Position numbers and translations under genes: made by a program | Assembly: GCA_000310025.1 (NCBI GenBank) | Contig: FN649732.1 | Coordinates: forward strand, 1,071,712 to 1,135,711 | DNA: 64,000 bases | Reading direction: 5' to 3' | Origin: Ectocarpus siliculosus | Taxonomy: Eukaryota; Sar; Phaeophyceae; Ectocarpales; Ectocarpaceae | The notes under the pieces: generated by a model | The model's input: the letters and a program-made list of their open reading frames with translations, nothing else | What the model was told of the DNA's origin: nothing | Databases searched by the model: none | Shown here: one piece after another, positions 159 through 16,430 of the stretch | Position numbering within the stretch: the stretch's first letter is position 1 | How the letters are laid out: the number at the start of each line of letters is the position of its first letter

Positions 159-989
159 GGACTCAAGACAGACGTGTACGTGGCCGGCAGCAAGAAGGCG
201 ATGTGGTACGACGACAGGTCTTGGGACGGGAGCACCGAAAGCGCTGGGTGAGCTGCAACTGAAACGCTTTCTACGCGCGCCGGTACTACACTAGGTTCGG
301 CATGTGGCCTGAGCCGTGAATCGATTCTACAACCGTCGAGCATGACTTGCAGCCCATGCCACTGGCGATTGTTCGTCACAGGGGATGTTTAGTCCGTGGC
401 TGGCCGTTCCACTCGCCGCCGTCATGCTCACTTTGCTAATGTTATGGATGGATACAAGCCACAAAGTCAGCGCCTGAGCTCACGAGTACCGGCGGTGTAG
501 TCTTCACCCTAGACGCTGCGTTGTGGATGCTCCTTGTACCTGTGCATGACCGAGTGCTTCGTACCCAGCGCATACCCCGTCCAGACCTGCCTCGAACTCA
601 CGAGGGCAAGGTACAGTAGGTTTGTCGCCCTATCCCGTCGCATCATTTTTTCTCTCTTTTTCTGTGCCAGATGGCCTTGTCTCTGCTTGCGTTGTGAAGT
701 ACCAAGATTGAACCAAGGGGGTGTACCTCTTTCTCTCCGGCCCATGATAGATAGTGACTGCTAATCTCAGTTGATACCTCGCATAGCGCGAAGTGGGAGC
801 GGAGGATCCCAGAATATCTGTCGTTGATTTCTATTGACTTGCGGACCCCTCGGGGCCAGTTTATTTGAGTGTACCTTTTTAGGGTAAGTTAACCTGTGAC
901 CACGGGAATCGACCGCGTCGAGTGTTGGATCAGTACGGACATACGAAGGTACTGGGTAGAGAGAGATCGGAACGGTTTTTAATGTGAAG

Positions 990-1034
<45 letters not shown>

Positions 1035-4000
1035 TTGCGGCCCCTCTCGTTCATAGATCCCACTCACAAGTGCCATCCCTCTCGTTTACGACCACCGGAC
1101 GTACTCTAAACGGTTGACAAGGCGGTCATTTGTGTACCCACCGACGAAACTAAGCCCACGAAAAGCTTTGAGAACTTTGTAGGCGCTTACCCTCGCAACT
1201 CGTATCGGCGGAGGATCTCATAGCTCCTCTCCCCCCTGTTTTTGAACAGCGTCTGTGTGAACGCGGTGGACTTCACTTCCCCTGCCAAGGAAATGCGCAC
1301 CATGCTCGACAAGCAGTACATCAGGCACGTCTTCATCCTGCTGGTACGTGAAGCTGGGAAAAGACGGCAGTATAAACACAGACAGTGCATTGGTCAAATG
1401 GCGTAACCTGCTGCTCGTCTTCCCGCAGATGTGGAGCGAAACGCGCGTGCCCCGGCAGAGAAAAGGCAGCGCAACCACGTTGGAAGGGCCTTGAATTGTG
1501 GTTGGCTCAGAAAGTGCCAACGGGAAACTGCACTACCTGGTGGATTACAAAAGTAACGGCCTTGACCAACCCCGTTCACCCACCTGTCCGCCACGCAGGA
1601 GAACGGCAAGCTGCTGTACACGTCGCAAGACCCCGAGGAGGGCAGCAAATTCGATGAGCCTATCGATATCCTGCCCAACGTTGAGGCGTTCAGCTGCCAC
1701 ATAGACTCCATCGGAAACGTCCACGTCAACAACATCAACAGTAAGTGCACGCGCGCGCGTTTTTATAGCCCACGCACGCCGTAGGAGGGTATCGGGGACC
1801 GGTGCTTTGGGATCATCATGGATGGCAGCATAGTAGAAATGTTCTTCTCGGTTGTGACCCAAGGTGAACTAGACATTCCGGCGTTCGCCACGTAACACAG
1901 AATGTCAACAAGGAAGCGGTTGCTCGGTATATCAATCCCTGACTAGGGAGAAAGCCTCATGAAGAAGCACCCAGTAGTCCCGCCCTAAAGAATCGCTGTG
2001 GGCGTACACTGGCGCTGTCCGTTACTCCTCGGAACTGCTTCTTTCTGAATTTCCCTTCCTTATCCCACACCCAACACCCGTCGACAACCTGCAGAGAACG
2101 GGAACCTAATGCACCACATGATGGACCAAGGCACGGGCCTGTGGATGCAGAAAGAAGTCATGGTGTCTGGGAGGGACGCTAGGGAGCACCTCCTGTGAGT
2201 CCTGGCAACCCTGGCCCACCCACCTGGGCTAGCTATGCCAGACATGATTATGGACACATGGACCCACGGTTAAAAGTCGTTGAGTTTTGGAAGAACTGGA
2301 ATTGTGTCGCGTTCGAGGCGTAGTTTTCGAATCGAATGAGAACTCTGACCGCACCTGGAATACGGCAATCTCTTGTGCCTTCGAGGACGGGCTCGAAATT
2401 TGTTCGCTTCGCGCCCCATTTTTCCATTGGGGCGAATCTGCAGAGGAAATTGAAACGGTGTATCCAACTCGGCCGAAACCCTTGACCGCCACCGATGCAC
2501 GCTCAAATGGGCCTTGAGTTTTTTCTTTCAAAAAAGCGAGATTTTTAGACTTCTCTGCATGTGTTTGACAATGTTTTTTGTCTGTGATTTTTGTTCCTAC
2601 TCGGCTCTGGCGCACATGCGCATGAAGATCGGTTGTCGACCTCAAGGTGACGTCCCTCAAGAAAACAGCCGGCAAGAAGACTGCGAAAGACCTCATGGAT
2701 GATGCGGAAGCCGACCTTCCCACCATATCCCTCTCGTGCGGATCGGGGGCGATGTTCCGCATCAACGGCAAGGGGCATCTCATGCACAAGGATAAGTGAG
2801 TTGTGTTGTGTTCCTCGCTGTTGTTAACGGTTGCGGAACTGTTGGCACATACAAACCTGGTTATGGTGAGCAACGCCCCCCCCGGCAGTGATTATCAGCG
2901 GGAGAAACGGGGGCCGGAAGCTGGTACCGGATCGAAAGTATGTCTGACGGGGCATGATGGGAGGAGCAGGGTCAGACGAAACGAGCCGTCCAGACGCTTC
3001 AGATACGACATGATAGGATGGATTCTGAATGTTCTTCACAAGCAAGGTTTCGCTACATTGTACTAGTCACGTTCTCTCTCTCTCTCTCTCGCTCTCGTCT
3101 CCCAACGCTGAGTGGTAGTGCGCGCGCATCATAGTCTACGTCGGGGACAACGTACATAGTGACGCCACAGCCCGCTGCCTTCGTCAAAACATGCAAACTC
3201 GACTCGTTCCCATCCGTGGTGTGTATCCAGGATCGTGAACGTGCAGCCGAACATGAATGGCTCGGTGAGAATCGGCCAGTTCGTGGACTCCTTCAGCGTG
3301 CCTCACGTGGCGATCCGCATGGAAGGCTTGGACAGGCCTCTGGAGATCATGTGCGGCAACATCCTGACCAAAAAGCTGGAGAAAATGGATGCATCTGCCT
3401 TGAAGGACGCCAAGTCCCGCGATGCCATGGGAGACGACGCCGAGAGGTGATTCGCCCGTTGTCTACGTGTAGGTGTGGAGCTATTATTGTCTCACCAAAG
3501 AGCCCGCACAGAATCTTTTTCTTGCTGTGTGCGTAAGGATGCTGCCCCGCAGTCGCAGGAGAAAGGTTTGTAGGTATTCCTCGTTGCCCTTCCACTACTA
3601 AACAGTGCTAACCTACATCTGTGTTCTGAAAATTCAACGAAACTACATTATAATCAAGGGAGTAAGCACGAGATACTGTAGCTTGAAACGGGGGGCTGTA
3701 CTTACCCTTCACACGTACTTGCCCTCCATACCCCGGAAAGATTCTTCCCGATCACGCAATCCTGTTTCGAATTCATTCGTATCACTGCATGTGCTCCCTG
3801 TGGAACTTACTTTGCGGAGTGAACCATCACTCGAGGAATGCACAGATAGCAATATTAGCATCACATCGTGTCGCTGATGATGGCCGTTAGACTCACGTCC
3901 TGTCTCCACCCCTCTTCCCTCTTCCCTCTTCCCTCGTTTGAACACCGCATCCAACGATCGACAACCAGCTTAATCGACGACCCCGATGATGGCGACTTGA

Positions 4001-7000
4001 ACGACTTTGTCGACGCGGTTGCTCAGCTTGCGAAGGGGTTCGAAGTCCTGTCTCCGACCGAATTTCCGAAGAAAAACGTGAGCAATACTTTCACAACCCT
4101 ACGAGAAATTGTGTAGGATTGACGTATATCTGTTTTCCTCACCAACGCTACATGTATCATGGACGACCCGTCGCAACTGACGGCCCATGCAGACAATAAT
4201 ACTTGTTGCCTTCGCAATGTAAAGCACATCCTTATTGGTGCCACTCCTTCGTTGATGTCGATGTTGACCCTCGCATGTTCACACCAAACACGACAGTAAC
4301 ACACCATCTCACCATAGACGCTATCTATTTTCACCTGTTCTTTCCTTATCGTAGGATGTGGACGGCATCTTCCGCCTGACCGGCGGGGCTTTCAACGACA
4401 AGAACAAGTTTGTCGCTTTCGTTGACGAGGGTCCCGCTTTCGAGGAGGAGGAAGTCGACGATGGCCCTCCGTCTCCAGGCTACGAATCCACCACCAGACA
4501 GATCGGAGGTGGCGTCGAGTCCATCGGTGGCGAACTGAAAGAGGTGCGAAGTGATGATGAGATGAGCACTTGTTTGGTGCGCGCAAACGAAGCAATCCTG
4601 CCTTGGTACCCTGGTGTAATTGTTGGGGCACAACCGGGGCTGCTCGTTGAGAGAGTACGATGTTCGGTGTTGGTGGGTGGTCGTGTAATATGTTTACCTA
4701 GTTGCTGAGGACGAACAGCATCGATGCCCGCTTCATGTCCGGGCTGCCAATTGTCGCAATCGTTTTCAGCTACAAATTCCTCGGCGTCGTAGTCAACAGT
4801 AGGTAAGAACAGTAGCCCCGAAGCATCCATGCTGCCACCCATTCCCTCGTGTTTGGTGCGCTTTCGCCACCTTCTACCGTAGTTTGCCTTTTGACTCGAA
4901 TATCACGTTCCCTTGTCTTCTGAGCGATTCGAAACGTCTGTTTTCACATTCGTAGGGTATCCATCTCACTACCGCGTTCTCTTTCGTCCCTGCCCCACTC
5001 GAAGATGGCTTCCCCGCAGAGGCCCACCTCGGTCTTCCGAGGCGATTCCGCGTTACGTGGGCGCGGACCGGTAGTCAGGCGTTTCACCAAGCACCGTTGC
5101 GCTCCTGACCCGTTCGGCATGGGACACATTGGCGTCGAGCGTGTGCGTCGCGTCGAGTGCCGGGTACGTGATAGATGTTTACTCTGTTGTCTTGTCAATG
5201 CTTGCCTCTGTTTGCCTCGGCTGTGTGCCAGCGCTTCTTTGAAGTCGCAATCTCGATTGCTTCCTGTCCTTTGGGGAGATACGCGACACGATCTTTGCTC
5301 AGACTAGTCGCCTAGCGCATGAAGATGTTCGTATGGCGCACGTACCTGCGGTGATGTGATAGCTGGCTGTACGGTATCTGCACGCCGGGTGGCTGCAGTC
5401 TCCCACGTAGCGTACATCCCCACACTATGAAGTTTCAACGCTTAAAGTCTTTCTTAATCGTCTTTGGATCCCTCCTCTCAATCGTTTATTTCCCCTCAGA
5501 ACATGGGAAACCTCGCCAAGAAGGCCAGAGAAAACGCTGACGAGGCCATTTACGAGACGAAAAAGCACGCGGCCGAGTCACTCAAGTAAGAGCATGAAGA
5601 GAATATCAGGAATCCTTATGTTTTGATCCCACCAGTTTTGTGTCATGTGTGCTGAAATCGTGTACCTGTTGTTCGGCTCTTCTGTGCCTTCACGGCCTCT
5701 TTTAACCGTCGGTACTGATTCAATTTCAACGTGGTGTGATGATGGTACGCCGCACGCCATGGATGTCTCAAGCTACGTCTCCCCGACACAATACCGTTGT
5801 GGGTTGTTGGTCCTTGGTCCTGCCGAGCACGTGTTGGGGGGCGTGGGACGTACGTCGCTGTAAACCTCCGTACACCCACAATGTCCGTTCACTACATGCC
5901 GCATCAGTGTCAGCGTTGGAGCTATGATGGGAAGTTGTTAGGCTTTCTAACGGAGAGAGAGTTATCTAAGGAAAACGATACCGTCGGACTTTCGCACAAC
6001 TTCATTTCAGGTCCAAGCTGAGCAACGCGGAGCGCGCTCAAGAGCAGGCCACGGAGTACGCTGCCGAGGCCACGAAGTGGGCTGGGGAGGCAAAGCAGGC
6101 GGCGGAAGCGGTTCGTTGGACGCAAGCCGCAGTCGAAGCGGCGGAGGCGGCGGTCAAAGCATCCGAGGAGGTGGAGATGAAAGCTTCACAAGACATCGGA
6201 GAGATGAAAGCTGCACAAGCTTTTGGGGCGAGGAAAGCTTCGCAAGATTCACAGGTGGACATTATTCTTGGAGTGGAAGGTCCGGAAGAGGAAGCGGCGA
6301 GGGCGATGGAAGCAGCAGCACGAGCGGTAGAAGCGGCCGGAGTTGCGCAACAGAAATCGGAGCAAGCCAAGGCCATCGAGCGGTTGCAAGGCTCGGACGG
6401 TCAACTGGTCGACGCCGGTGATTTCGAAGCTGGCGGATTCTTGTGAGTGGTAGAATAGAATGAAAATAGCCCGCCTTCCCCAAGCCGAAGTATGTTGCAG
6501 AGAAGGACGGTGCATGATTGGGTGGTAGGGGTGCCTCGGTGCAATCCCAGTTCCACGTTTCTGGGCCTCTGCAGTACATTTACCTGCTAATTGTCGTGCT
6601 TGCGTCTTGTTTGTTGATGGTGTCATCCGTGTGCTACACCTGACCAGGTCGGCCGAGTACTCCAGAGGCCGCTTCTTTGGCCCCGTGGCGAAGAAGCTGT
6701 GGCTAGCGGCAGAGGCCAAGCGGGCGGGAGCACGCCCTGGGCGTGACTCGTCATACCTGCCAGTACGTGCGAGGCACGGACAGTCGCCGGCTTGGCCTGG
6801 CCGCTCGCCGGGTTATCCTGGCCGCTCGCCGGCTATTGGTGTCCGTTACAGGCGGACGGCTGCTAGCACCCCAGCCGCACACTCTGATGTGGTCGAAGCC
6901 GTAGAAGCTGCAGGACAGGCTGTGGAAGCTGCGGCCCAAGCGATGGAGAGAGCGGAACAAGCGAAAGAAGCCCTGGGTGAGGACACGGGAGAGCCAGAGC

Positions 7001-10000
7001 GCAAAGGAGATGACCCTGACGACAATAACCCCCGGGAGTACGGGTGAGCACTACGGCGACTACCCAACGGTTGGCTGAACTCGTGAGATGGCGTCCGTTG
7101 CCCCGCCATGTCCGCGGCCCTTCTATGCAATAATAGCTCGTCTGATAACTCACAATTTTTCCATTTGTGCGCCATACACCCTGGTTAACCTGTTGTATGC
7201 CTGACAGGTCGGCGGAGCCCTCCAACAAGGGTTTCTTTGATTCCATCGCCAACGAACTTCGGGAGTTGGCAGACGAAGCAAAGCGGGAGGCTGAGAAAGA
7301 AGCTGCGCAAGCTGGGCACGGGTGGGTGAACTTGTTGCTGCTTGACGAGACTTGGATGGTTTCGTTAGTTACACACGAAAAGCAACGCGATTAGAGGTCG
7401 TCGACAGTAGGTGGGACTGGGATTGAACTGTCTTCGCCCCTGGCGCCAGTTGCGTCTGGCGATTCGTTTACCTGATGTGTGACGCTTTTTTATGTTGCCC
7501 TTGTGATATCGACTAGTCTGTTGAAGCGTACAAATGTGGCCGTGTGTCCGCTTGATTGAGATGGCACCGCCTCATGTATCGTATGGAGCCGGGAATTTAT
7601 AGTTGTTTTGGTCTCCTGCAGTGTTTAAGCGACGGTCGGGCAGTTCTCACATTAGCGAGGCTATATTTTCGCGGCGTGGGTGCGTTGGTAATGAAACCCA
7701 AAAACGTTGCGAAACATCTAGGCCCTGGTCTCGTCTGCATGAAACTTTTGCTTCCAAAAAACGTATTCCGGCAAATCGCTATAATTGTGTCCAATGCAAT
7801 GGCCACGGTTGTCCTTCTCTCATGAAACCCCAGCCGCTACGTATGAGTTGGGAAACAACATTTCAGCCTTCAAGTGTTGCGGAACACTACGGCGTCACCA
7901 AGTTTGGTTGTAAGGGGACCACATCGGTGCCATGCATCTTGCGAGTTGAAAAAGAATGTTCGCGGTGTTCTCCCCCGACGGGCCACAAATGATGTTGTTG
8001 GCAATGTTCTCAGGCCACCCGGGCACACAAGCAGTGGACTGTTTGGCTCTGAGGCCATGGAGGGTGAGACAACAACAAGGCGCCCGATCATCAACAGTAC
8101 CGCTGAGTGCCTGACGGAGCCGAGGTGGGAGGAAGCAAGGAAGAAAGCTGAGAGAACGGCCTTGGAGGCCGCCCGGCTTGTGAAGGCAGCCCAAACGGCG
8201 GCCTTTGAACTCAAAGCAGTCGAGGAGGCGGAGGCCGCAGAAGCTCTAGACTCCGAAGAAGACGAAGGGGAGGATGACATCGACGGCGATGACGGTGCCT
8301 ACGGGTGAGTTTGGAGATGCCCTCGCACCCAGCCGCAGCGTGCGCGTTCGGATAAGAATCTAGACTAAGTGCTTCTTCTTTCGAAAGGTCAAAGGACAGC
8401 CACACCCTGTATTGTTCCCCCGATGGGCCTCTGTTGTTGGTTGTGGTGGCCTGCGTTGACCAATTCCCGTGTAAAACCCTTGGACAGATCGACAGAACAT
8501 ACCAGCAGAGGTATTGGCGGCTGGGTCAAGAAAACAACCAAGAAGGCCAAGTCCGGGGTCCAGAGTGCGGCCAACAAGACGAAGAAGGCGGCCCAGACGG
8601 CCGCCCGAAAAGCCGAGGAGGCAGCTAAACAGGCGAGATAACCTGTTTATAGTTGGCTGTTTCTGCATACGTAGCATCTTATGTTGTTTGTTGATGTTTT
8701 TCGTTCTATAATAGAAACCGTTGCGGTCTCTACTCAGTATCTTCAACAGCCTACCGGTCCAAGTGACGCGGCAGACACCTTCTGTAGTCACAATGCAACT
8801 GCTCAACGTAGGTGCCGAGTAGGTAATCACCACGAACGCGGTAATAGAGCACAAACCTAAAACAAAAAGGCATTGGGAGGACCCCAGCCAGACAAAACTC
8901 AGACGTCGTAGGTGACATTTGGTATGGGGCAAAGGAGATGCATGACTACATGGTTGGACGAGAAGACGTATTACGTAGCGATAGTGATCATGGTGCGACA
9001 TGTTTTGATTGGTATCAAGCAGGCGAAGCGGGAGGCGGAGAGAATTGCCAAGGACGCAGCGCGCAAAGCTGAAGCAGCAGCCCTTCAAGCCAAGAGGGAA
9101 GCGGAGAAGGCTGCAAAGGCCGTGGCTCAAGCCGCCGAACAAACAAAGAAGGCAGGAGGGCTTGTAGCAAACGAGGTGCGTGAGACAATCGGCATGTACT
9201 GCGACATGATGTACACCACGAGGTCAAACACCTCCTACACTTGAGGGAGAAGCAACCCCCTGCTGTACGATTATCTACCCTCACTTTTGCGGGCTTTCAG
9301 AACCGTTGGCTATCGCACTAGAAATCAGACACAGCGTTTCCGGAAAACCGGTTAACTGAACTGATTTTTGCACAGTATTCGAGTTGCCGGAGTAGACTGG
9401 AAGTCGGGCAAATCAGCACTTTTTAGGGAGAGATGCACCCCCTTCCTCCTCGCTAGATTTGGCCCCCTCGCCGTGTGGATGTTGAGACAAGCACGGAGAG
9501 AGCCTTGTCGTCTCGAACCATAACAGACACACGTTCCTGTTCATGGAGCTCTACTGGTGCGCATGCATGCTTGAATACGTCCGGTCCCCGACAGGTAGCA
9601 GACAAGGCGAAGATAGCGGCGGATGTGGCGAAGCAGGCCGCGGAGGGTGCCGGGAAGCTGGCGGAAGACGCCGGGAACGAGGTGGGAGATGTGGCGGGTG
9701 ACATCAAGGACGGAGTCCAGGATGCGGCCGGCACCGTGAAGGACGGCATCGTTAACGCGGCCGACAAGGTGCCGAACGCTGTGCTTTCTTATGCCTTCCT
9801 TTCTCTTGCCTCGGGTTGAGAGTGCCTAGACAAGGAGTGGATCATGAACCGCGTGAAAAACACATACGTTGAACAAACCGTTGTCAAAGTAAGAATGCCG
9901 ACAGTGTTCGATTGTCCTTCCTCACCGAAAAACCCCACTCACAATCAAGGCAGGATCTGCGAGAGTTAATTAGTCGAAGTTGGTCTGGCAAGCATTCATT

Positions 10001-13000
10001 TCCACGCAGGTTGCTTGATGGCTCGAACGTTGGACGCCACGTGCGTGCAAACCAAGCTTCCTAACGCCACATTTACGCTTTGAAAACGCTTTTTTCACTG
10101 CTGTCCTGTGGAAAAGGTCAAGGATGTTGCCAAGGATACCGTCGAGGTCGTGGGTGATGTGACGATGAAGGTGGTCGAGGTGGTGGAAGAGGTGGTCGTT
10201 GAGGTGAGACGCAGTCGAAGAGATACGGTGCTTTACATGGTTTGGGTCCGGCGCAGCGCACCAGTCGCTGACGTTCGCGCCGCAGCGCCATCGTCAGGAC
10301 TACTGTGGATACTTGGCGGCAGTTCTCGCTCCTGAATGCCTACAACACTTGTCTGTTCCATGAGGGTGTTGATCCTGTACTTTTGCCAACCATCTCTTAC
10401 CCTTTCGTAGTCTAGATGCGTCGTCGAATCGTTCCGATCAACGTTGGGGGCTCCCCCGCCGACTAACCCTCCGTCGAACGTTCTATTCTTCTGGATACTC
10501 AGGTGTGGGAACACACTCCAGAGGGGCTGAAGAAGGTGGCCAGGAAAGTGTCGGTGAGCTACATAGTCCCTCGTCGCGTTGGAAGAGTATTCAATTTGGA
10601 TAACGAAGCCCCTCTCCTGTTTTCAAGGCGTTCCTTCTCTGAGCACCAAGTATACACGCCGTGTGCACGTGAGGTCCTGTTCTTTCGATTGTCCGCTTCG
10701 AAACAACGATGCTCCCTCTTGCACTGATACCTAGTGTATTTTCTTTCTGGTACAGGTGGGCATCACGACTGAGTTGGTTGATGAATACACCATCAACCCA
10801 TCGAGCTAGAGTATGGTAAACGTTTGATCGGTGTTTTATGTTTCGAAGGGTATTGGCTCTTACCCTGACTGAAATCAAATCCAGGGCAACAAGTTGAACT
10901 AGAGAGAAGCAAAGGCTCGCAATGAAAGGACAATCAACACGACCTGAACAGCACAGCCGTACACGGAACATGACTCCTCCTTTTTTGGCCAATGGGAGAC
11001 TTCGCACCGTCTACAGTAGATGCTCCAATTATTTATCGTTCACATCCCCCTATTTGACACTCCTCCTCCTTTGATCGAGTCTTGGAGGAAGGCGCAGGTG
11101 TAAGGGAATTGAATTGTGCGTGCTCCAGAACAACCACGACAAGACATTGATCAGTAACATCCGTCAGCAGCATATTTGCGATTGCTTCGAACCGTCCAAA
11201 TACCCCGCCCCGACGTTTCTTGCCTTGATTCCATCCCTTCCAGAAAGTTGTCAAGAAGGGGGTGGATTTTGTGGTGAAGATCGGCAAGGTGGTGTATCAC
11301 TTCGTGGAAACCAAGCTCGAGCAGCTCATTAAGGCACTCGACTGGCTGTGGGACAAAATCAAGGTTTGGACGTGCGGGTTGCGGCAGAGACAACACCAAA
11401 TCGAAAAACTGCACCGCATGTGGCTGTAGGCAGAAGGACAAGATGCATTCACGGATTCACACCTGTTACTGGCTGTAGTCCACGCCGAATCCCCTGCCAC
11501 TCATGCAGAGACGTACATCGATCTGGACCAAGGCATTCATTGCTGCATCACAATGAGGTCCAAGCTGGTGCTTGTGGTTGCCGCGGATAGTGCGAGAAGA
11601 GTGAGGTTCGCAATAGCAGTAACGTGACCACCCCTGGGTTGAGTTACACGACGATGTGGGCCACAACTGATCTTCTTGCGATTTTCATGACGCTGGAAAG
11701 CTCGAAAGCAGCCGCACTACATTTCTGCGTTGAACGCATGTGCAATCCTGCGATTGTTGATGCTACCGTACCAAACGAACAGACGGGTATCATGAAGGCC
11801 ATCGAATGGCTCGCCAATTTCTTCAAGTACAAGGAGATTTTGAAGACCGCCGAGATATTGGAAGCCCAGGTGTTGGCTGGGATGGACGAGTTCATCAAAT
11901 CAATTCCCACACAGGGAGACATCAAGGAATACTTCAACGAAATCCGCCAAATGCTGCAGAAGAAGACGTGAGCATGATCCTCCCGCTTTGGTCTTCAATG
12001 AAACCGTTAGTTGATACCCCTCTTATGGAATAGAAGCACGCGGTCAGGGTTGCACCTTAGGCTTCTACAGTATCCAATTTTGTTTTCTTCATGGCCTGTT
12101 GGATATGCCACAGAGTCTCGGGTTGGTTGTCGAACGAAACTGAAAGAAACTGTGCAACAAGGCATCATGTCCTCGAACCCATACCACCTGTGCTTCGTGT
12201 GGATCACCTATGCTCGGTCTTCGGAATGTTGGTCCTGAGATCTAGTGTCAGCAGTGTAAAGTCCCCGTGCTTTGTTAAACTAGAAACCTGAACCCAGATA
12301 GACGTGCAACGAAGACCACACGAGTTTCGGGACCGAATCAATTCTGTGAGTTGTTGTAGTAGCCAACGGCTCGCCACCTGCCAGCGTGCCGACCGGTAAG
12401 CCGCCGATCCGGGTGATACGTTCTTGGCGTGCTTCGTTCCTTACGTTCTCCGTCAACACTGGCGTTTCGTGGCTCCCCTGCAGCGGCCTTGACCTCGATG
12501 CCCAAGACATGAGCAAGGAGGACACGGCGCAGGACGACCGCGAGATCGATCCCAAGGAAAACTTCGTTCAACACCACGCCGAGTCCGGCACCTTCCACGA
12601 GTCAGCGGGCCCCGCGGATGAAGAAGGTGGGTCGATGGCATCTCTCTCGATCGCGTCCACCGACGTTGTGGGGTCCCACCCGAACCTTGCGTTACATGCC
12701 GGGCCGGCAGTGACCCTTGCTGCTGCATTTTGTAGTTGCCTGAGTTGACACGGTCAGTCAGTCTGTGCCTGCATACGATTGGACACATCGGCCATCGTGG
12801 GCGTTGGCAGGGTCCAAGTTGGGTGCTGCACGGAGCCCCAGCTGACAGCATGCGACGAACCGCCCTTTGAGTTCTACGCTCGAAAGGCCACTCAACCCTA
12901 GAATCGTCAACCATGACGCACTCCCCACCCCCACCGTACACGTCTGTCTGTCTCGAGCAGAGGATTCTTCGGACGACAGCGATGACGACGACTCCGGCAA

Positions 13001-16000
13001 GGACAGCATGGCGGACAAGCTCCAGTACCTGTACGGAAAGTTCAAAGAGGGCCTGAACGCGTTTATGTCCGCGCTCGCCGAAGGTTTCCTCGATGTTCTG
13101 GAGGTACGGTATGCCGGGGGTGAGGGGGCGAGTGAGGACAACCTTTGGTGCCTCCGCTCCTCGCGCTAGACCTGCAGCCAGTCGAGAGCACTCTTGGGTT
13201 TGTCTGTGTACGCGCACTTCCTTAAGAGATTGATTGCGAGGGGGCATGCCGAAGTTGCCCATATCGAACACCTCCCTTTGTTCGGTAAACGTTGTACATG
13301 GCGCTCTTTTCTTCAGGAAAAAAAAATTGTGTTGCGGCCACCACCTACAAAACAACAGCGAATCATTCCGCGTGCGTTCCGATGTCGCACAGGCCAGCAC
13401 CAAGGCAATGATGGACCCCCTGAAGAACGCAGCGAACGCGGTCCGTGCCTGGCTCGCCGATGGAGGCACGCAATACATCCCGGTCATCAGCGAGATCTAC
13501 AAGCTCATCACGGGGCGCAAACTCAAGCTTGCGAAAGCGTTGTTCTTCATGCTTGCCATCCCCGTAACATACGCCTCCAAGGCACTTCTAGGGAAATGGC
13601 CATCGGAGCTGGGCTTGATAGACCCAGCGATGGACACCAACAGTAGCACTATGGCGATCGTTGAAGAGGACGTCCAATCTTCTGGCACAGGTTAGTCTAG
13701 AGGGTAACCAACTGGCGTCGTTCCGCCAGCTGCCGCCAAAAATATAATAGACTATGCTGTCCTCGTCGAGGAAGGGTTACAGTACAATTTCCCTACAAGC
13801 TCGAACACAATGCACAAAGATACTGTGGTCAGTCACTGATTCGACCGTACTGAGAGTTTTTCTACCGCCCTGCTACCGTCTGGCGTGCAAGATCTGTTGT
13901 CACTACTGTATTGTCACAGCACTTCCGGCACTAAACAGGCAACTCGCGCAACCTCAATCCTTCCTCTTACAGGTGCTCCAGCGCATCTGACGAGGAGCCT
14001 TCCTGGCGATAACAGCAGCAGGTACGTAGAAGTGCTCGCTTGGGAGCTCGGAGAGATATGTTTCGTTGCGGCCCTGTCCGTGAAGACCTGGCGTCGCCAA
14101 AAATGATTTGATGAAAAATGTGACGCCGAATCGCGTGATGAATCTCACCGAATGTGAGGATGTATGGTATCACCCACCACCACCGTCTCCCGGCGAGGGA
14201 AGTGCGGCGATAAATAGTTCTCCACGCCTTTGATGGCACAAGCAAACTACACGGGACTTGCACCCGAGAAGCAGTCTTTCTTTCCCGAAACTATGAGTAA
14301 GTCTGACTCAACAATTTATTGGCTGCTGTCTTGTCCGTCGCGTCGCGTGCAGCGAGTTCGTCTACACATCGAGGTCGGGGGAAAAGGAATCAGACAAGGG
14401 CAGCGAGACGAAAAAGAAAGTATGGTGGGCCCTGCTGAAGGTTGCCTCCATCGTCATGTCTGGCATCGTAATACCTTTCCAAGGTGATGGGAAGTTCGCC
14501 CAACTCATTGGTTTCGATGCTGTCAAGCGGCAACGTTGCTCATCGTCAAGCATCTTGCGGCCAATAGCAACGGCGTACAAGACAACATGGCTAGAACGTA
14601 CTTCATGCAGTTTCTCAAGAGTGCTCTATGGGCAACGCCCCGTTGTCCCGCGGAGATGCAAACATCGAAAATACAGCCCGTTCTTCTTCTGGGTGAGAGT
14701 GGAAATGCCGCTGAGTAACAGGATGCATGTTTGTGCTAATCATCTCACTGCGGTGTTGGGGTGCGTTCATTGTCTGCTGTTTCGAATTGCAGCGGTGGTG
14801 GACGTCAGCAAGGTTCCAGGACAGAGACGCTTCCCCAGGGGCCACAGGGTATTCAAGATAATTTCTTTGGCCAAAGTAATCCAGAAGCTCCTGGACCGCG
14901 GAGCGAGCATGGTCTACGTTGGCGATTACTTCGACAAGACAAAAAACCGGGAGAACAAGAAGAAAACTGTCCTGAAGAAGTAAGAAAACGGAATGTTTTC
15001 CGTTTCCGGTTGTGTGTGCCTTCCCGTGCCCTCCCCGGCTGGCTTGTAGCGGGGCCTAGACTTTCGTCCAAACGGGATTGATCGATAGACCACGCTTGCT
15101 GATTTCCCTCCGTTGCTCAAATGGCTTCAGATCGCTGTTGTAGTGGTTGCATGTTGCTGGTACGCCGAAGTCAGTCTGTGTGTTATGCATAGACTATGCC
15201 GATACAAGGAGGTACTGTAGTATCGAGAAACCCTTCCTTGTTTTTATTGGCCCCTGCTTCTTTCAGGGGCGACAAGGGGCTCTTCTGGTTTACCTTCGCA
15301 CTCGAGGTGGGCGGCACCGTCGCCGACGCCGCTTTGGGGTTCTCCGAACAAGGGCACCCTCACGCAGGCGGTCTGGAGCACAATACTCCGCAGGGAGGGC
15401 TCACGTAAGCAAGCGGACGTGATGAGTCTCTTTTCTGTGGTCCCGGATCATTGTCGAACAACTGACTGAATCGTGCTTCTAGACGGCATCGGGCAGAGTG
15501 ACTCTCCCCTGTCGCAGGCTCGTGAAGATGTCAGCATAAAGTGCATGTACAGGTTTATCCACTGCCGATGGACGCGAAGGAAATCAACCACCGTCTAACT
15601 TGATGGAGAGCACCCCATCGCAGAAACGACTACATGTTCCTCGTACTCGCTTGACCGCCGCACCCTGCCGTAATGGCTTCATCACGTTAAGGATCGTCCA
15701 GCAGAACGATTATGCGAGCGTCACAGAATACCTTCCTTCCCTGTCTCGCTTGTCCTCGGCCAACGGTGCCGTGTGCCTTGGATTCCCTCCGCCTTTTCAA
15801 CTTTCAGGCCGGTAATTGTTTACGATGCATGCGAAGGTATCGCTGAGATCGCGAAGGGGGCAAGGTTGATGTGGCTTGCAATCGAGTTTGGCGAGGGCGG
15901 CTTCCAGCAAGGAACGATGGTGTTTCAAGGTGATGTGCCTCCCTCTGTGATGCTGAGTTTGGCCGCGTTTGACGGAGGTACTGCCCTGATGAAGCCGGTT

Positions 16001-16430
16001 ACTGGAGTCGACGGGGCTGGTGCATGCTTGAAAAGCAAGCAATCCTTTCTTCAGATGAGGGGATCCAGGCCTTCTTGTTGAATGATTCCACCAATCGTCA
16101 TCTTGAGCTGCCTGCCATGGGTCTTGGTTCTGAGCTACAACCTTCGCCCTGACAACAACAATGCCCTGCTCCACAGGTGTTCACGGGGTTTTCAAGGGAG
16201 CCTCTCAACTGGCCAAGGCGTATTCAAAGTTTCTGAAGGTCCCGCCTAACAAGCCCGAATACAAGATTATGGTCATACTTTTTGCAGCCCATATGAAGTA
16301 CAGGACGAACGTCTGGCCCCTCGGAATAGCATCGGTGGCGGTGCAGCTAATAGGTGCTGACAAGGCTGACACGGAAGACCAAGAGCAGACAAACGACGCG
16401 TACTGGACTGCTTGCCATGCGTACCTGTGA
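159..16430 (+). CDS. Giant multi-exon protein of unknown function (5' end missing) with LEA-like helical insert
   Basis: Thirty-three exons join without a frame break (1722 aa): 159-247, 1250-1347, 1511-1539, 1599-1740, 2095-2194, 2628-2795, 3231-3446, 3969-4077, 4355-4543, 4702-4802, 4956-5163, 5500-5585, 6011-6442, 6648-7043, 7208-7321, 8014-8304, 8488-8632, 9023-9175, 9595-9768, 10117-10203, 10503-10553, 10756-10776, 11244-11363, 11783-11967, 12484-12626, 12961-13103, 13393-13690, 13973-14021, 14353-14483, 14793-14979, 15267-15404, 15808-15929, 16177-16430. Least certain are the ends of exons 2 and 3 and the exon at 10756. Exons 5500-10553 encode an Ala/Lys/Glu-rich amphipathic-helix region. 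Exons 11244-11967 carry a Trp-rich helical block (ALDWLWDKIK, AIEWLANFFKYKEILKTAE). Exon 13393 carries IPVISEIYKLITG and a hydrophobic stretch, FFMLAIPVTYASKALLG. From memory, these blocks and the N-terminal part resemble large fungal and bacterial conserved hypothetical proteins. No catalytic motif is recognised, so function is unknown. The first exons lie left of the window. Confidence 0.8.
991..1034. repeat. (AAC)n microsatellite
   Basis: About fourteen CAA/AAC units lie in the first intron (248-1249) of the giant gene. Confidence 0.9.
5500..10553 (+). other. Exon block encoding the LEA/apolipoprotein-like helical insert
   Basis: Within the giant gene, ten exons (5500-5585 to 10503-10553) encode repeated charged amphipathic helix rich in Ala, Lys, Glu and Asp. 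Examples are KQAAEGAGKLAEDAGNEV at about 9637, QAKREAERIAKDAARKAEA at about 9020 and KVVEVVEEVVVE at about 10168. Such composition is typical of group 3 LEA proteins, apolipoproteins and other lipid-surface or desiccation proteins. Five consecutive exons here (5500-8304) end in phase 2, as expected if the block grew by exon duplication. That history is inference. The blocks on either side have ordinary mixed composition, so this part appears to have expanded separately. Confidence 0.7.
8633..9022 (+). other. Candidate GC-AG intron in the giant gene
   Basis: The exon starting at 8488 has no GT donor before its in-frame TAA (8639-8641). CAG followed by GCGAGA at 8633 has the shape of a GTGAGA donor with C at position 2. 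It joins at phase 0 to the acceptor CAG ending at 9022 and gives KQ-AKREAERIAKD, continuing the helix register. If the intron is retained, translation stops at 8641. Confidence 0.55.

What the first reader, a model, noticed from the sequence alone, without database searches (positions are those of the whole stretch)
159..16430. A composite giant protein: conserved hypothetical scaffold with a lineage-specific helical insert
Thirty-three exons give one unbroken frame of 1722 residues in the window. The N-terminal and C-terminal blocks resemble, from memory, large hypothetical proteins of fungi and bacteria (Trp-rich helical blocks, the IPVISEIYKLITG region, hydrophobic AIPVTYASKALLG). Between them lies an LEA/apolipoprotein-like segment spread over ten exons. 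A protein combining a possibly exchanged scaffold with a desiccation-type helix would be a new architecture, and an intertidal alga gives a plausible reason for it.
Basis: partly seen in the sequence, partly recalled or inferred. Interest (0 to 1): 0.72.

Follow-up and report, generated by a model that had tools for sequence, protein, structure and literature searches.

The report
Giant algal protein, bacterial scaffold, metacaspase neighbour
In an alga's genome, a very large protein built on a little-known bacterial scaffold, with a long helical stretch added in its middle, lies directly behind, and may be joined to, a cell-death-type protease, and the whole unit is present twice in tandem.

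Summary
The long spliced frame is real. My model has 29 exons (159-16430, 1601 residues), not 33 and 1722. A tandem copy about 32 kb upstream has a counterpart of each of the 29 exons (exon 27 uncertain) at matching splice sites, including a rare GC donor. The frame continues at least 4 kb upstream of the window.

Both outer blocks match unclassified bacterial proteins of about 1,070-2,270 residues (cyanobacteria, Methylocystis, Nitrospira, others), collinearly: E 4e-32, against at most 1.4 bits in 200 shuffles. A six-frame search without gene model hits only the frames of exons 19, 20 and 23 of the window. Fungal homologues could not be tested. The added segment (about 600 residues) sits where bacteria have about 85 profile columns, and belongs to the gene. 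It matches no Pfam family. Its downstream part is an 11-residue-repeat helix running on into the bacterial-type helix, so a lengthened helix fits better than a borrowed LEA domain.

New: directly upstream, on the same strand and duplicated with it, lies a type III (p10-p20) metacaspase. It can be joined in frame (44 exons, 2345 residues), but two adjacent genes are not excluded. Function (lectin-type sensor, protease, membrane-prone tail) is inferred.

The parts
159..2194 (+). Exons E1-E4 (159-247, 1250-1343, 1599-1740, 2095-2194): end of a beta-propeller-like block, bacterial-type
   Evidence: profile of four bacterial N-terminal halves matches E2-E6, E 1.8e-14, best of 200 block shuffles 3.8 bits; the aligned part of the Stanieria protein weakly matches NCBIfam beta-propeller lectin NF052348, E 9.9e-7, 28.1 bits against a cut-off of 200; the algal block itself matches no NCBIfam family
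2628..4077 (+). Exons E5-E7 (2628-2795, 3231-3446, 3969-4077): Ig-like-looking block and following helix, bacterial-type
   Evidence: profile matches reach from E2 to E6 and from E2 to E7; dN 0.057, dS 0.325 between tandem copies. 'Ig-like' is my reading of the sequence, not a tool result
4355..4543 (+). Exon E8: spacer before the added segment
   Evidence: splice sites and frame conserved in paralogue; dN/dS 0.62; no homology test of its own
5500..8304 (+). Exons E9-E13 (5500-5585, 6011-6442, 6648-7043, 7208-7321, 8014-8304): upstream part of the added segment, Ala/Glu-rich. E11, E12 and E14 open with a similar (G)-S-(A/T)-E motif in phase 2
   Evidence: conserved in paralogue at 72-100% aa; no Pfam family; none of five stretches tested has its strongest period at the hendecad value
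8488..10203 (+). Exons E14-E17 (8488-8632 with GC donor, 9023-9175, 9595-9768, 10117-10203): downstream part of the added segment, hendecad amphipathic helix
   Evidence: hydrophobic period 99 degrees per residue, 0 of 500 shuffles as strong; GC donor shared by paralogue
10503..11967 (+). Exons E18-E20 (10503-10553, 11244-11363, 11783-11967): Trp-rich hendecad helix of the bacterial scaffold
   Evidence: six-frame search with bacterial C-terminal profile hits the E19 frame (E 0.0027) and E20 frame (E 7.7e-6) in profile order; period 98.5 degrees
12484..13103 (+). Exons E21-E22 (12484-12626, 12961-13103): acidic linker
   Evidence: splice sites and frame conserved in paralogue
13393..13690 (+). 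Exon E23: IPVISEIYKLITG / AIPVTYASKALLG block, conserved hydrophobic core of the bacterial family
   Evidence: six-frame hit E 7.4e-11, profile 351-427; dN 0.307, dS 0.354 between copies
13973..16430 (+). Exons E24-E29 (13973-14021, 14353-14483, 14793-14979, 15267-15404, 15808-15929, 16177-16430): C-terminal tail with stop TGA
   Evidence: splice sites conserved except uncertain E27 of the paralogue; exons diverge nearly as fast as introns; no significant profile match of its own to the bacteria

Best explanation
The window holds the C-terminal two thirds or more of a tandem-duplicated giant gene. Shown: it is a member of an unnamed family of bacterial proteins that carry a sensor block (beta-propeller, LamG or tectonin-like), an Ig-like-looking block, a long hendecad amphipathic helix and a conserved hydrophobic block. 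In the alga about 600 residues were added just before the helix. The downstream part of the addition is an extension of the helix. Most likely (inferred, about 55%) the same reading frame begins with the type III metacaspase that lies directly upstream. Proposed mechanism (inferred): the propeller binds a ligand, perhaps a glycan; the long amphipathic helix and hydrophobic tail hold the protein at, or push it into, a membrane; and the calcium-dependent metacaspase, fused or co-duplicated, acts there or cuts the Lys/Arg-rich linker to free the scaffold.
For: Gene model and paralogue. Bacterial homology: hhalign probability 99.3; HMM E 2.9e-25 for the C-terminal block and 4.1e-32 for the whole, best of 200 shuffles 2.3 and 1.4 bits; six-frame search; BLASTP E 2.9e-15 to Kovacikia, 1.8e-13 and 3e-7 to the Stanieria C- and N-terminal blocks, among 15 subject sequences; N-terminal profile E 1.8e-14. 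Hendecad period 98.5-99 degrees in E14-E20 and 98.0-98.5 in two of three bacterial relatives. Metacaspase: Pfam C14 E 2.8e-34; order p10 then p20 against solved structures; both catalytic motifs present in both copies. Type III metacaspases are described as Ca-dependent, and PtMCA-IIIc as autoprocessing and cutting after Arg (passages of PMC5756287 and PMC8455989).
Against: Fusion: the linker exon is 44 of 45 identical between copies after an internal ATG but only 27 of 39 before it, as if a second gene started there; and reading on from the last metacaspase exon both copies meet a TGA at the same place. Homology: the reversed algal protein still scores 9.9 bits (E 0.0069) with the whole-length profile, in the helical insert, so amphipathic composition adds a little to scores. 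Membrane action: at the threshold used, one TM-like segment in the scaffold part of the window copy (four in the paralogue, two or more in each of eight bacterial relatives) and no usable structure model (pLDDT 34.7). Helix: the Methylocystis counterpart has no significant period (p 0.098). The tail (E23-E29) is weakly constrained (dN/dS 0.87 and 0.58). No activity, localisation or expression evidence.
Confidence: 0.5

Rival explanations
1. Two adjacent genes: a type III metacaspase ending three codons after the last p20 exon, and a separate giant scaffold gene starting at the conserved ATG inside the linker exon, duplicated together as one segment.
For: Conservation step at the internal ATG and shared TGA after the p20 exon. 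Genome searches with the tail and the propeller block matched only C7, not the other two type III metacaspase loci on C15 and C17 (part of the fetched sequence is masked, so absence is not fully firm).
Against: Strong donor at the end of the p20 exon in the window copy (rank 42 of 43; 12 of 43 in the paralogue) and middling acceptors (rank 17 and 13 of 43) in phase 0 in both copies; gap of only 576 and 336 bases.
Confidence: 0.42
2. One reading: an exchanged scaffold into which a desiccation-type LEA/apolipoprotein helix was inserted as a foreign domain.
For: Ala/Glu/Lys-rich, 22% Ala, hendecad-like helix in E14-E17; about 600 residues more than in the bacteria at one place.
Against: No Pfam match at E up to 1. 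One hendecad period spans E16 to E20, that is insert and bacterial-type helix together (205 residues, 98.5 degrees). None of five stretches of E9-E13 peaks at that value: peaks at 95 to 108 degrees, significant at 0.05 in three of five.
Confidence: 0.12
3. The C-terminal tail (E23-E29) is decaying or under diversifying selection, and the gene may be on the way to losing or changing it.
For: Exon identity 68% against intron identity 64% there, while metacaspase exons are 95% against 70%; dN/dS 0.87 and 0.58.
Against: Frames and most splice sites intact in both copies; E24 is 92% identical and the EIYKLITGRKLKLAKALFF stretch is the same in both.
Confidence: 0.3

Closest known systems
Unnamed bacterial propeller-helix giants (Stanieria BAU67470, Methylocystis WP_165050668, Kovacikia WP_224346717, Undibacterium WP_162044878)
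   Same: Hendecad helix and hydrophobic IPxxSxLYxxITG / AIPVT block; in Stanieria, Methylocystis, G321/G597 and G565 also the collinear propeller end and following block
   Different: No metacaspase domain; about 85 profile columns where the alga has about 700 residues; intronless; beside some a further gene (471-535 residues) lies just upstream
Type III metacaspases (GtMC2, PtMCA-IIIc)
   Same: p10 domain N-terminal to p20, His and Cys motifs
   Different: Followed, fused or adjacent, by about 1,900 residues of bacterial-type scaffold plus linker; not described in the passages read, nor seen in the listings
Cyanobacterial orthocaspases with C-terminal WD40 domains
   Same: Caspase-type protease combined with a propeller (passage in PMC5756287)
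   Different: p20 without p10, WD40 propeller; no helix or hydrophobic tail mentioned in the passages read
Group 3 LEA proteins / apolipoproteins
   Same: 11-residue-period amphipathic helix in E14-E17 (that these families have such a period is recalled)
   Different: No profile match; continuous with the scaffold's own helix

Membership tests
Bacterial propeller-helix giant family (unnamed) | C-terminal hendecad helix plus hydrophobic block in order | tested here: met
   six-frame hits at profile 116-155, 156-218, 351-427 in this order along the window; E 2.9e-25
Bacterial propeller-helix giant family (unnamed) | propeller end and following block collinear upstream | tested here: met
   profile 312-529 matches E2-E6, E 1.8e-14, shuffles at most 3.8 bits; BLASTP to Stanieria E 3e-7
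Bacterial propeller-helix giant family (unnamed) | partner gene of about 471-535 residues directly upstream | tested here: not met
   partner profile hits no frame of 30 or more codons in the window or in L009, L010, L023, L024. Not a strict feature: found beside 4 of 14 bacterial gene copies, three of which built the profile
Type III metacaspase (upstream gene or N-terminus) | p10 precedes p20 | tested here: met
   query 13-105 matches MCA2 267-357 and query 93-269 matches 74-250
Type III metacaspase (upstream gene or N-terminus) | catalytic His-Cys pair | tested here: met
   HYSGHGG and DCCHSG present in both copies, aligned to metacaspase-1; that these are the catalytic motifs is recalled
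Type III metacaspase (upstream gene or N-terminus) | calcium-dependent cleavage after Arg/Lys | not testable with these tools
   needs the expressed protein
Type III metacaspase (upstream gene or N-terminus) | same polypeptide as the window gene | tested here: inconclusive
   in-frame junctions in both copies against conservation step at an internal ATG and a shared TGA
LEA / apolipoprotein | match to a Pfam LEA or apolipoprotein profile | tested here: not met
   0 families at E up to 1 for the 643-residue stretch
LEA / apolipoprotein | 11-residue amphipathic period | tested here: inconclusive
   present in E14-E20; in E9-E13 none of five stretches peaks at 98-99 degrees, though E12 peaks near it (95 degrees, p 0.002)
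   no fungal genomes in the collections

The most novel reading that the evidence does not exclude
One polypeptide of about 2,345 residues joins a type III metacaspase to a lectin-type propeller sensor and a lengthened membrane-active hendecad helix with hydrophobic tail: a self-contained sensor, protease and membrane executioner, assembled by an alga on a bacterial scaffold, whose protease may cut its own Lys/Arg-rich linker to release the membrane part.
Probability: 0.2. Interest if true: 0.85.

Novelty: new variant of a known kind. Interest (0 to 1): 0.55.

Why it matters
As far as I know (recall, not searched), no executioner of cell death has been tested in brown algae. A metacaspase duplicated together with, and possibly fused to, a bacterial-type sensor and membrane scaffold gives a concrete candidate that one transcript assay and one protease assay can test. 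The bacterial family is itself unexplored: in the members scanned the conserved helix and hydrophobic blocks have no Pfam or PADLOC family, and the profile finds no significant PDB chain. Only the sensor parts show weak lectin-propeller, tectonin or LamG matches. The algal copy links this family to at least one eukaryote.

Tried and rejected
Pfam and NCBIfam scans of the scaffold gave nothing above threshold. Pattern-based scans with the algal sequence found no relative in genome contigs (0 of 62 stretches) or viral contigs (0 of 72; 0 of 65), and tblastn found none in phages. The opening came from three plasmid tblastn hits at E 0.1-0.3, which would normally be discarded and were confirmed only by profiles built from them. 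Structure prediction of the bacterial tail from two sequences failed (mean pLDDT 34.7), so no fold search was run. PDB search with the bacterial profile found nothing significant (best E 0.45), and PADLOC nothing in 8 proteins. A first impression that E23-E29 evolve faster than introns was dropped after better alignments: they evolve at about the intron rate. A thought that the bacterial partner protein resembles TULIP/P47-type proteins is recall only; Pfam gave no such match for two of them. The own-genome search with Pfam C14 found 1 match, on C15, and missed the C7 genes, probably because they are split into exons. It was replaced by a protein query that found 27 exon matches at four loci. 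A search with an unrelated family (kinesin) served only to learn the genome's size. Rfam found nothing in the window.
Full report
What was checked. The window is C7:1071712-1135711 of a 189.5-Mb genome in 492 contigs. A brown alga of the Ectocarpus type is my inference: four type III metacaspase loci were found, and PMC8455989 (passages and part of a table) lists four metacaspases, type III present, for Ectocarpus siliculosus.

Gene model. Splice sites and frame, read by eye and checked by script, give 29 exons from 159 to 16430, 1601 residues and a TGA stop. A search of the whole genome with the C-terminal 392 residues found 12 exon matches, all on C7: seven in this gene and five in a second copy. 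The second copy starts about 32 kb upstream. A counterpart of each of the 29 exons could be placed there, with the same phases and with lengths equal or differing by multiples of three; the script demanded equal phase, so this part is not an independent test. The GC donor after exon 14 is the same in both copies. Exon 27 of the second copy is uncertain.

Upstream of the window. Peptides from upstream frames showed five further conserved blocks and a caspase-type protease upstream of each copy. Reading the DNA gave nine protease exons, an Ala-rich linker exon and the five blocks as exons. Joined, they give 44 exons and 2345 residues for the window copy and 2321 for the other, without internal stops. 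The 15 upstream exons were placed by eye, and all have equal lengths or lengths differing by multiples of three. Without the metacaspase the scaffold gene would start in or before the linker exon, about 4 kb upstream of the window; with it, about 8 kb.

The protease is a type III metacaspase. Pfam Peptidase_C14 matches at E 2.8e-34. In the solved-structure search the query's residues 13-105 match the C-terminal p10 part of metacaspase MCA2 (267-357), and residues 93-269 match its p20 part (74-250). The order is therefore p10 then p20, the type III arrangement (definition read in passages of PMC5756287 and PMC8455989). Two more loci of the same order exist in this genome (C15, C17). Genome searches with the propeller block and with the tail matched only C7, and tblastn of the whole protein in 20 kb around each of the two loci matched only the metacaspase part, apart from one chance-level hit at E 0.37.

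One gene or two. For one gene: the last p20 exon ends at a donor that ranks 42 of 43 in strength in the window copy (12 of 43 in the other), acceptors rank 17 and 13 of 43, all in phase 0, and the gap is 576 and 336 bases. For two genes: after an internal ATG in the linker exon the copies agree in 44 of 45 bases, before it in 27 of 39; and reading on from the p20 exon both copies meet a TGA after three codons. I put the fusion at about 55%.

Outer blocks. tblastn of the C-terminal 606 residues against 72,556 plasmid records gave three hits at E 0.1-0.3. They proved to lie in long open frames, annotated as hypothetical proteins in two of the three records: Stanieria (1197 aa), Methylocystis (1180 aa) and Kovacikia, without annotation. 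With Stanieria as query at E up to 0.001, four records matched, itself and Methylocystis included, adding Undibacterium (E 3e-4) and a second Kovacikia plasmid (E 5e-5). A profile comparison of the two algal with five bacterial C-terminal blocks gave probability 99.3 and E 9e-21 for that one comparison. Further members: a Nitrospira and a Methylumidiphilus genome (2 of 122 pattern matches), 2 of 398 genomes of one phylum sample (query genome included), 3 of 292 of one order (query genome included) and 3 of 198 of another phylum (query genome included). In these samples the family is sporadic.

Significance. A profile of eight bacterial C-terminal blocks scores 84.8 bits (E 2.9e-25 for 1,000 sequences) on the window protein; the best of 200 block-shuffled copies scores 2.3, and the reversed protein 2.4 (reversed paralogue 3.2). 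A profile of three long bacterial proteins (one of them cut at its start) scores 106.7 bits (E 4.1e-32), shuffles at most 1.4, reversed proteins 9.9 and 9.3 in the helical insert. Its matches lie in order: algal residues 56-290, 988-1130 and 1187-1277 to profile positions 284-505, 595-735 and 832-922. Without any gene model, the C-terminal profile run on six frames of the window hits, at E up to 1, only the frames of exons 19, 20 and 23, in profile order, and the same three exons of the paralogue. A separate profile of four bacterial N-terminal halves matches E2-E6 at E 1.8e-14, shuffles at most 3.8 bits. Direct BLASTP gives 2.9e-15 (Kovacikia) and, for Stanieria, 1.8e-13 and 3e-7 for the two outer blocks (15 subject sequences only). 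The far C-terminal tail (E24-E29) has no significant match of its own.

The added segment. Between the two outer blocks the bacterial profile has about 85 columns and the alga about 700 residues. The helical exons are at the same place in both tandem copies. The stretch matches no Pfam family at E up to 1. In exons 14-15 and 16-17 the hydrophobic period is 99 degrees per residue, near the hendecad value (0 of 500 shuffles as strong in each); over E16-E20 and over E18-E20 it is 98.5 (0 of 500; p 0.002). Two of three bacterial counterparts of E18-E20 have the same period (98.5 in G321, 98.0 in Stanieria; Methylocystis 102.0, p 0.098). So the downstream part of the insert reads as a lengthening of the helix already present. 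Of five stretches in E9-E13 none peaks at 98-99 degrees: three have a period significant at 0.05 (107.5, 102 and, in E12, 95 degrees), two have none. E11, E12 and E14 begin with a similar phase-2 motif, which suggests exon duplication; I did not test that statistically.

Constraint. Between the copies dN/dS is about 0.22 for the metacaspase, 0.52 for the linker, 0.18-0.39 for propeller and following block, 0.62 for E8, 0.19-0.35 for the insert E9-E18, 0.38 and 0.32 for E19-E20 and E21-E22, 0.87 for E23 and 0.58 for E24-E29 (Nei-Gojobori; ratios computed). Pooled exon identity against intron identity is 0.950/0.701 for the metacaspase, 0.965/0.850 for E9-E11 (perhaps a recent conversion tract) and 0.678/0.636 for E23-E29 (12 pairs of unrelated introns align at 0.44).

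Function. Inferred only. The Stanieria propeller stretch that aligns with the algal one weakly matches lectin propellers (28.1 bits, E 9.9e-7, far below the curated cut-off of 200). The Undibacterium member has a LamG match over its cut-off, and the Methylumidiphilus member a tectonin match just under it. A binding or sensing role is therefore likely. Each of the eight bacterial members scored has two or more TM-like hydrophobic segments; in the scaffold part the window copy has one and its paralogue four. Type III metacaspases are described as calcium-dependent, and one as autoprocessing and cutting after Arg. The proposed sensor-protease-membrane chain rests on these and is untested.

Literature. 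The listings of searches for type III metacaspase, p10 and Ectocarpus (15 of 28 papers listed), metacaspase, brown alga and type III (12 of 612), metacaspase with beta-propeller (9 of 11), metacaspase with Ectocarpus (15 of 17) and type III metacaspase with domain architecture (3 of 3) show no paper that by title or abstract start describes such a gene. Only passages of two papers were read. The library holds open-licence papers only.

Noticed in passing
window 5500-7321 (E9-E12) and paralogue: Exons and introns are both more alike between the tandem copies here (E9-E11: exons 0.965, introns 0.85) than elsewhere, which looks like a recent gene conversion tract.
   Followed up: partly
L025:4555-5970, L027:4289-5893, L047:8414-10018: A gene of about 471-535 residues lies directly upstream of some bacterial scaffold genes. 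The Methylocystis and Stanieria ones are related (E 2.8e-6), and the G565 one matches their profile (E 3.2e-91). No Pfam family above its cut-off in the two scanned, no NCBIfam family above its cut-off in these three, no PADLOC hit.
   Followed up: partly
L051:4346-12502: One bacterial genome (G856) carries two scaffold genes side by side and a third on another contig.
   Followed up: no
window 10756-10809: A possible alternative exon after E18, with an AG acceptor, would end the protein at TAG; it is skipped in my model and could give a short form.
   Followed up: no
L009:1941-2064 and window 8488-8632: Two GC-AG introns follow these exons, both with the GC donor kept in the paralogue.
   Followed up: partly
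L027:9547-10338: A short gene with a Pfam S8 (subtilase) match lies right behind the Methylocystis scaffold gene on the other strand.
   Followed up: no
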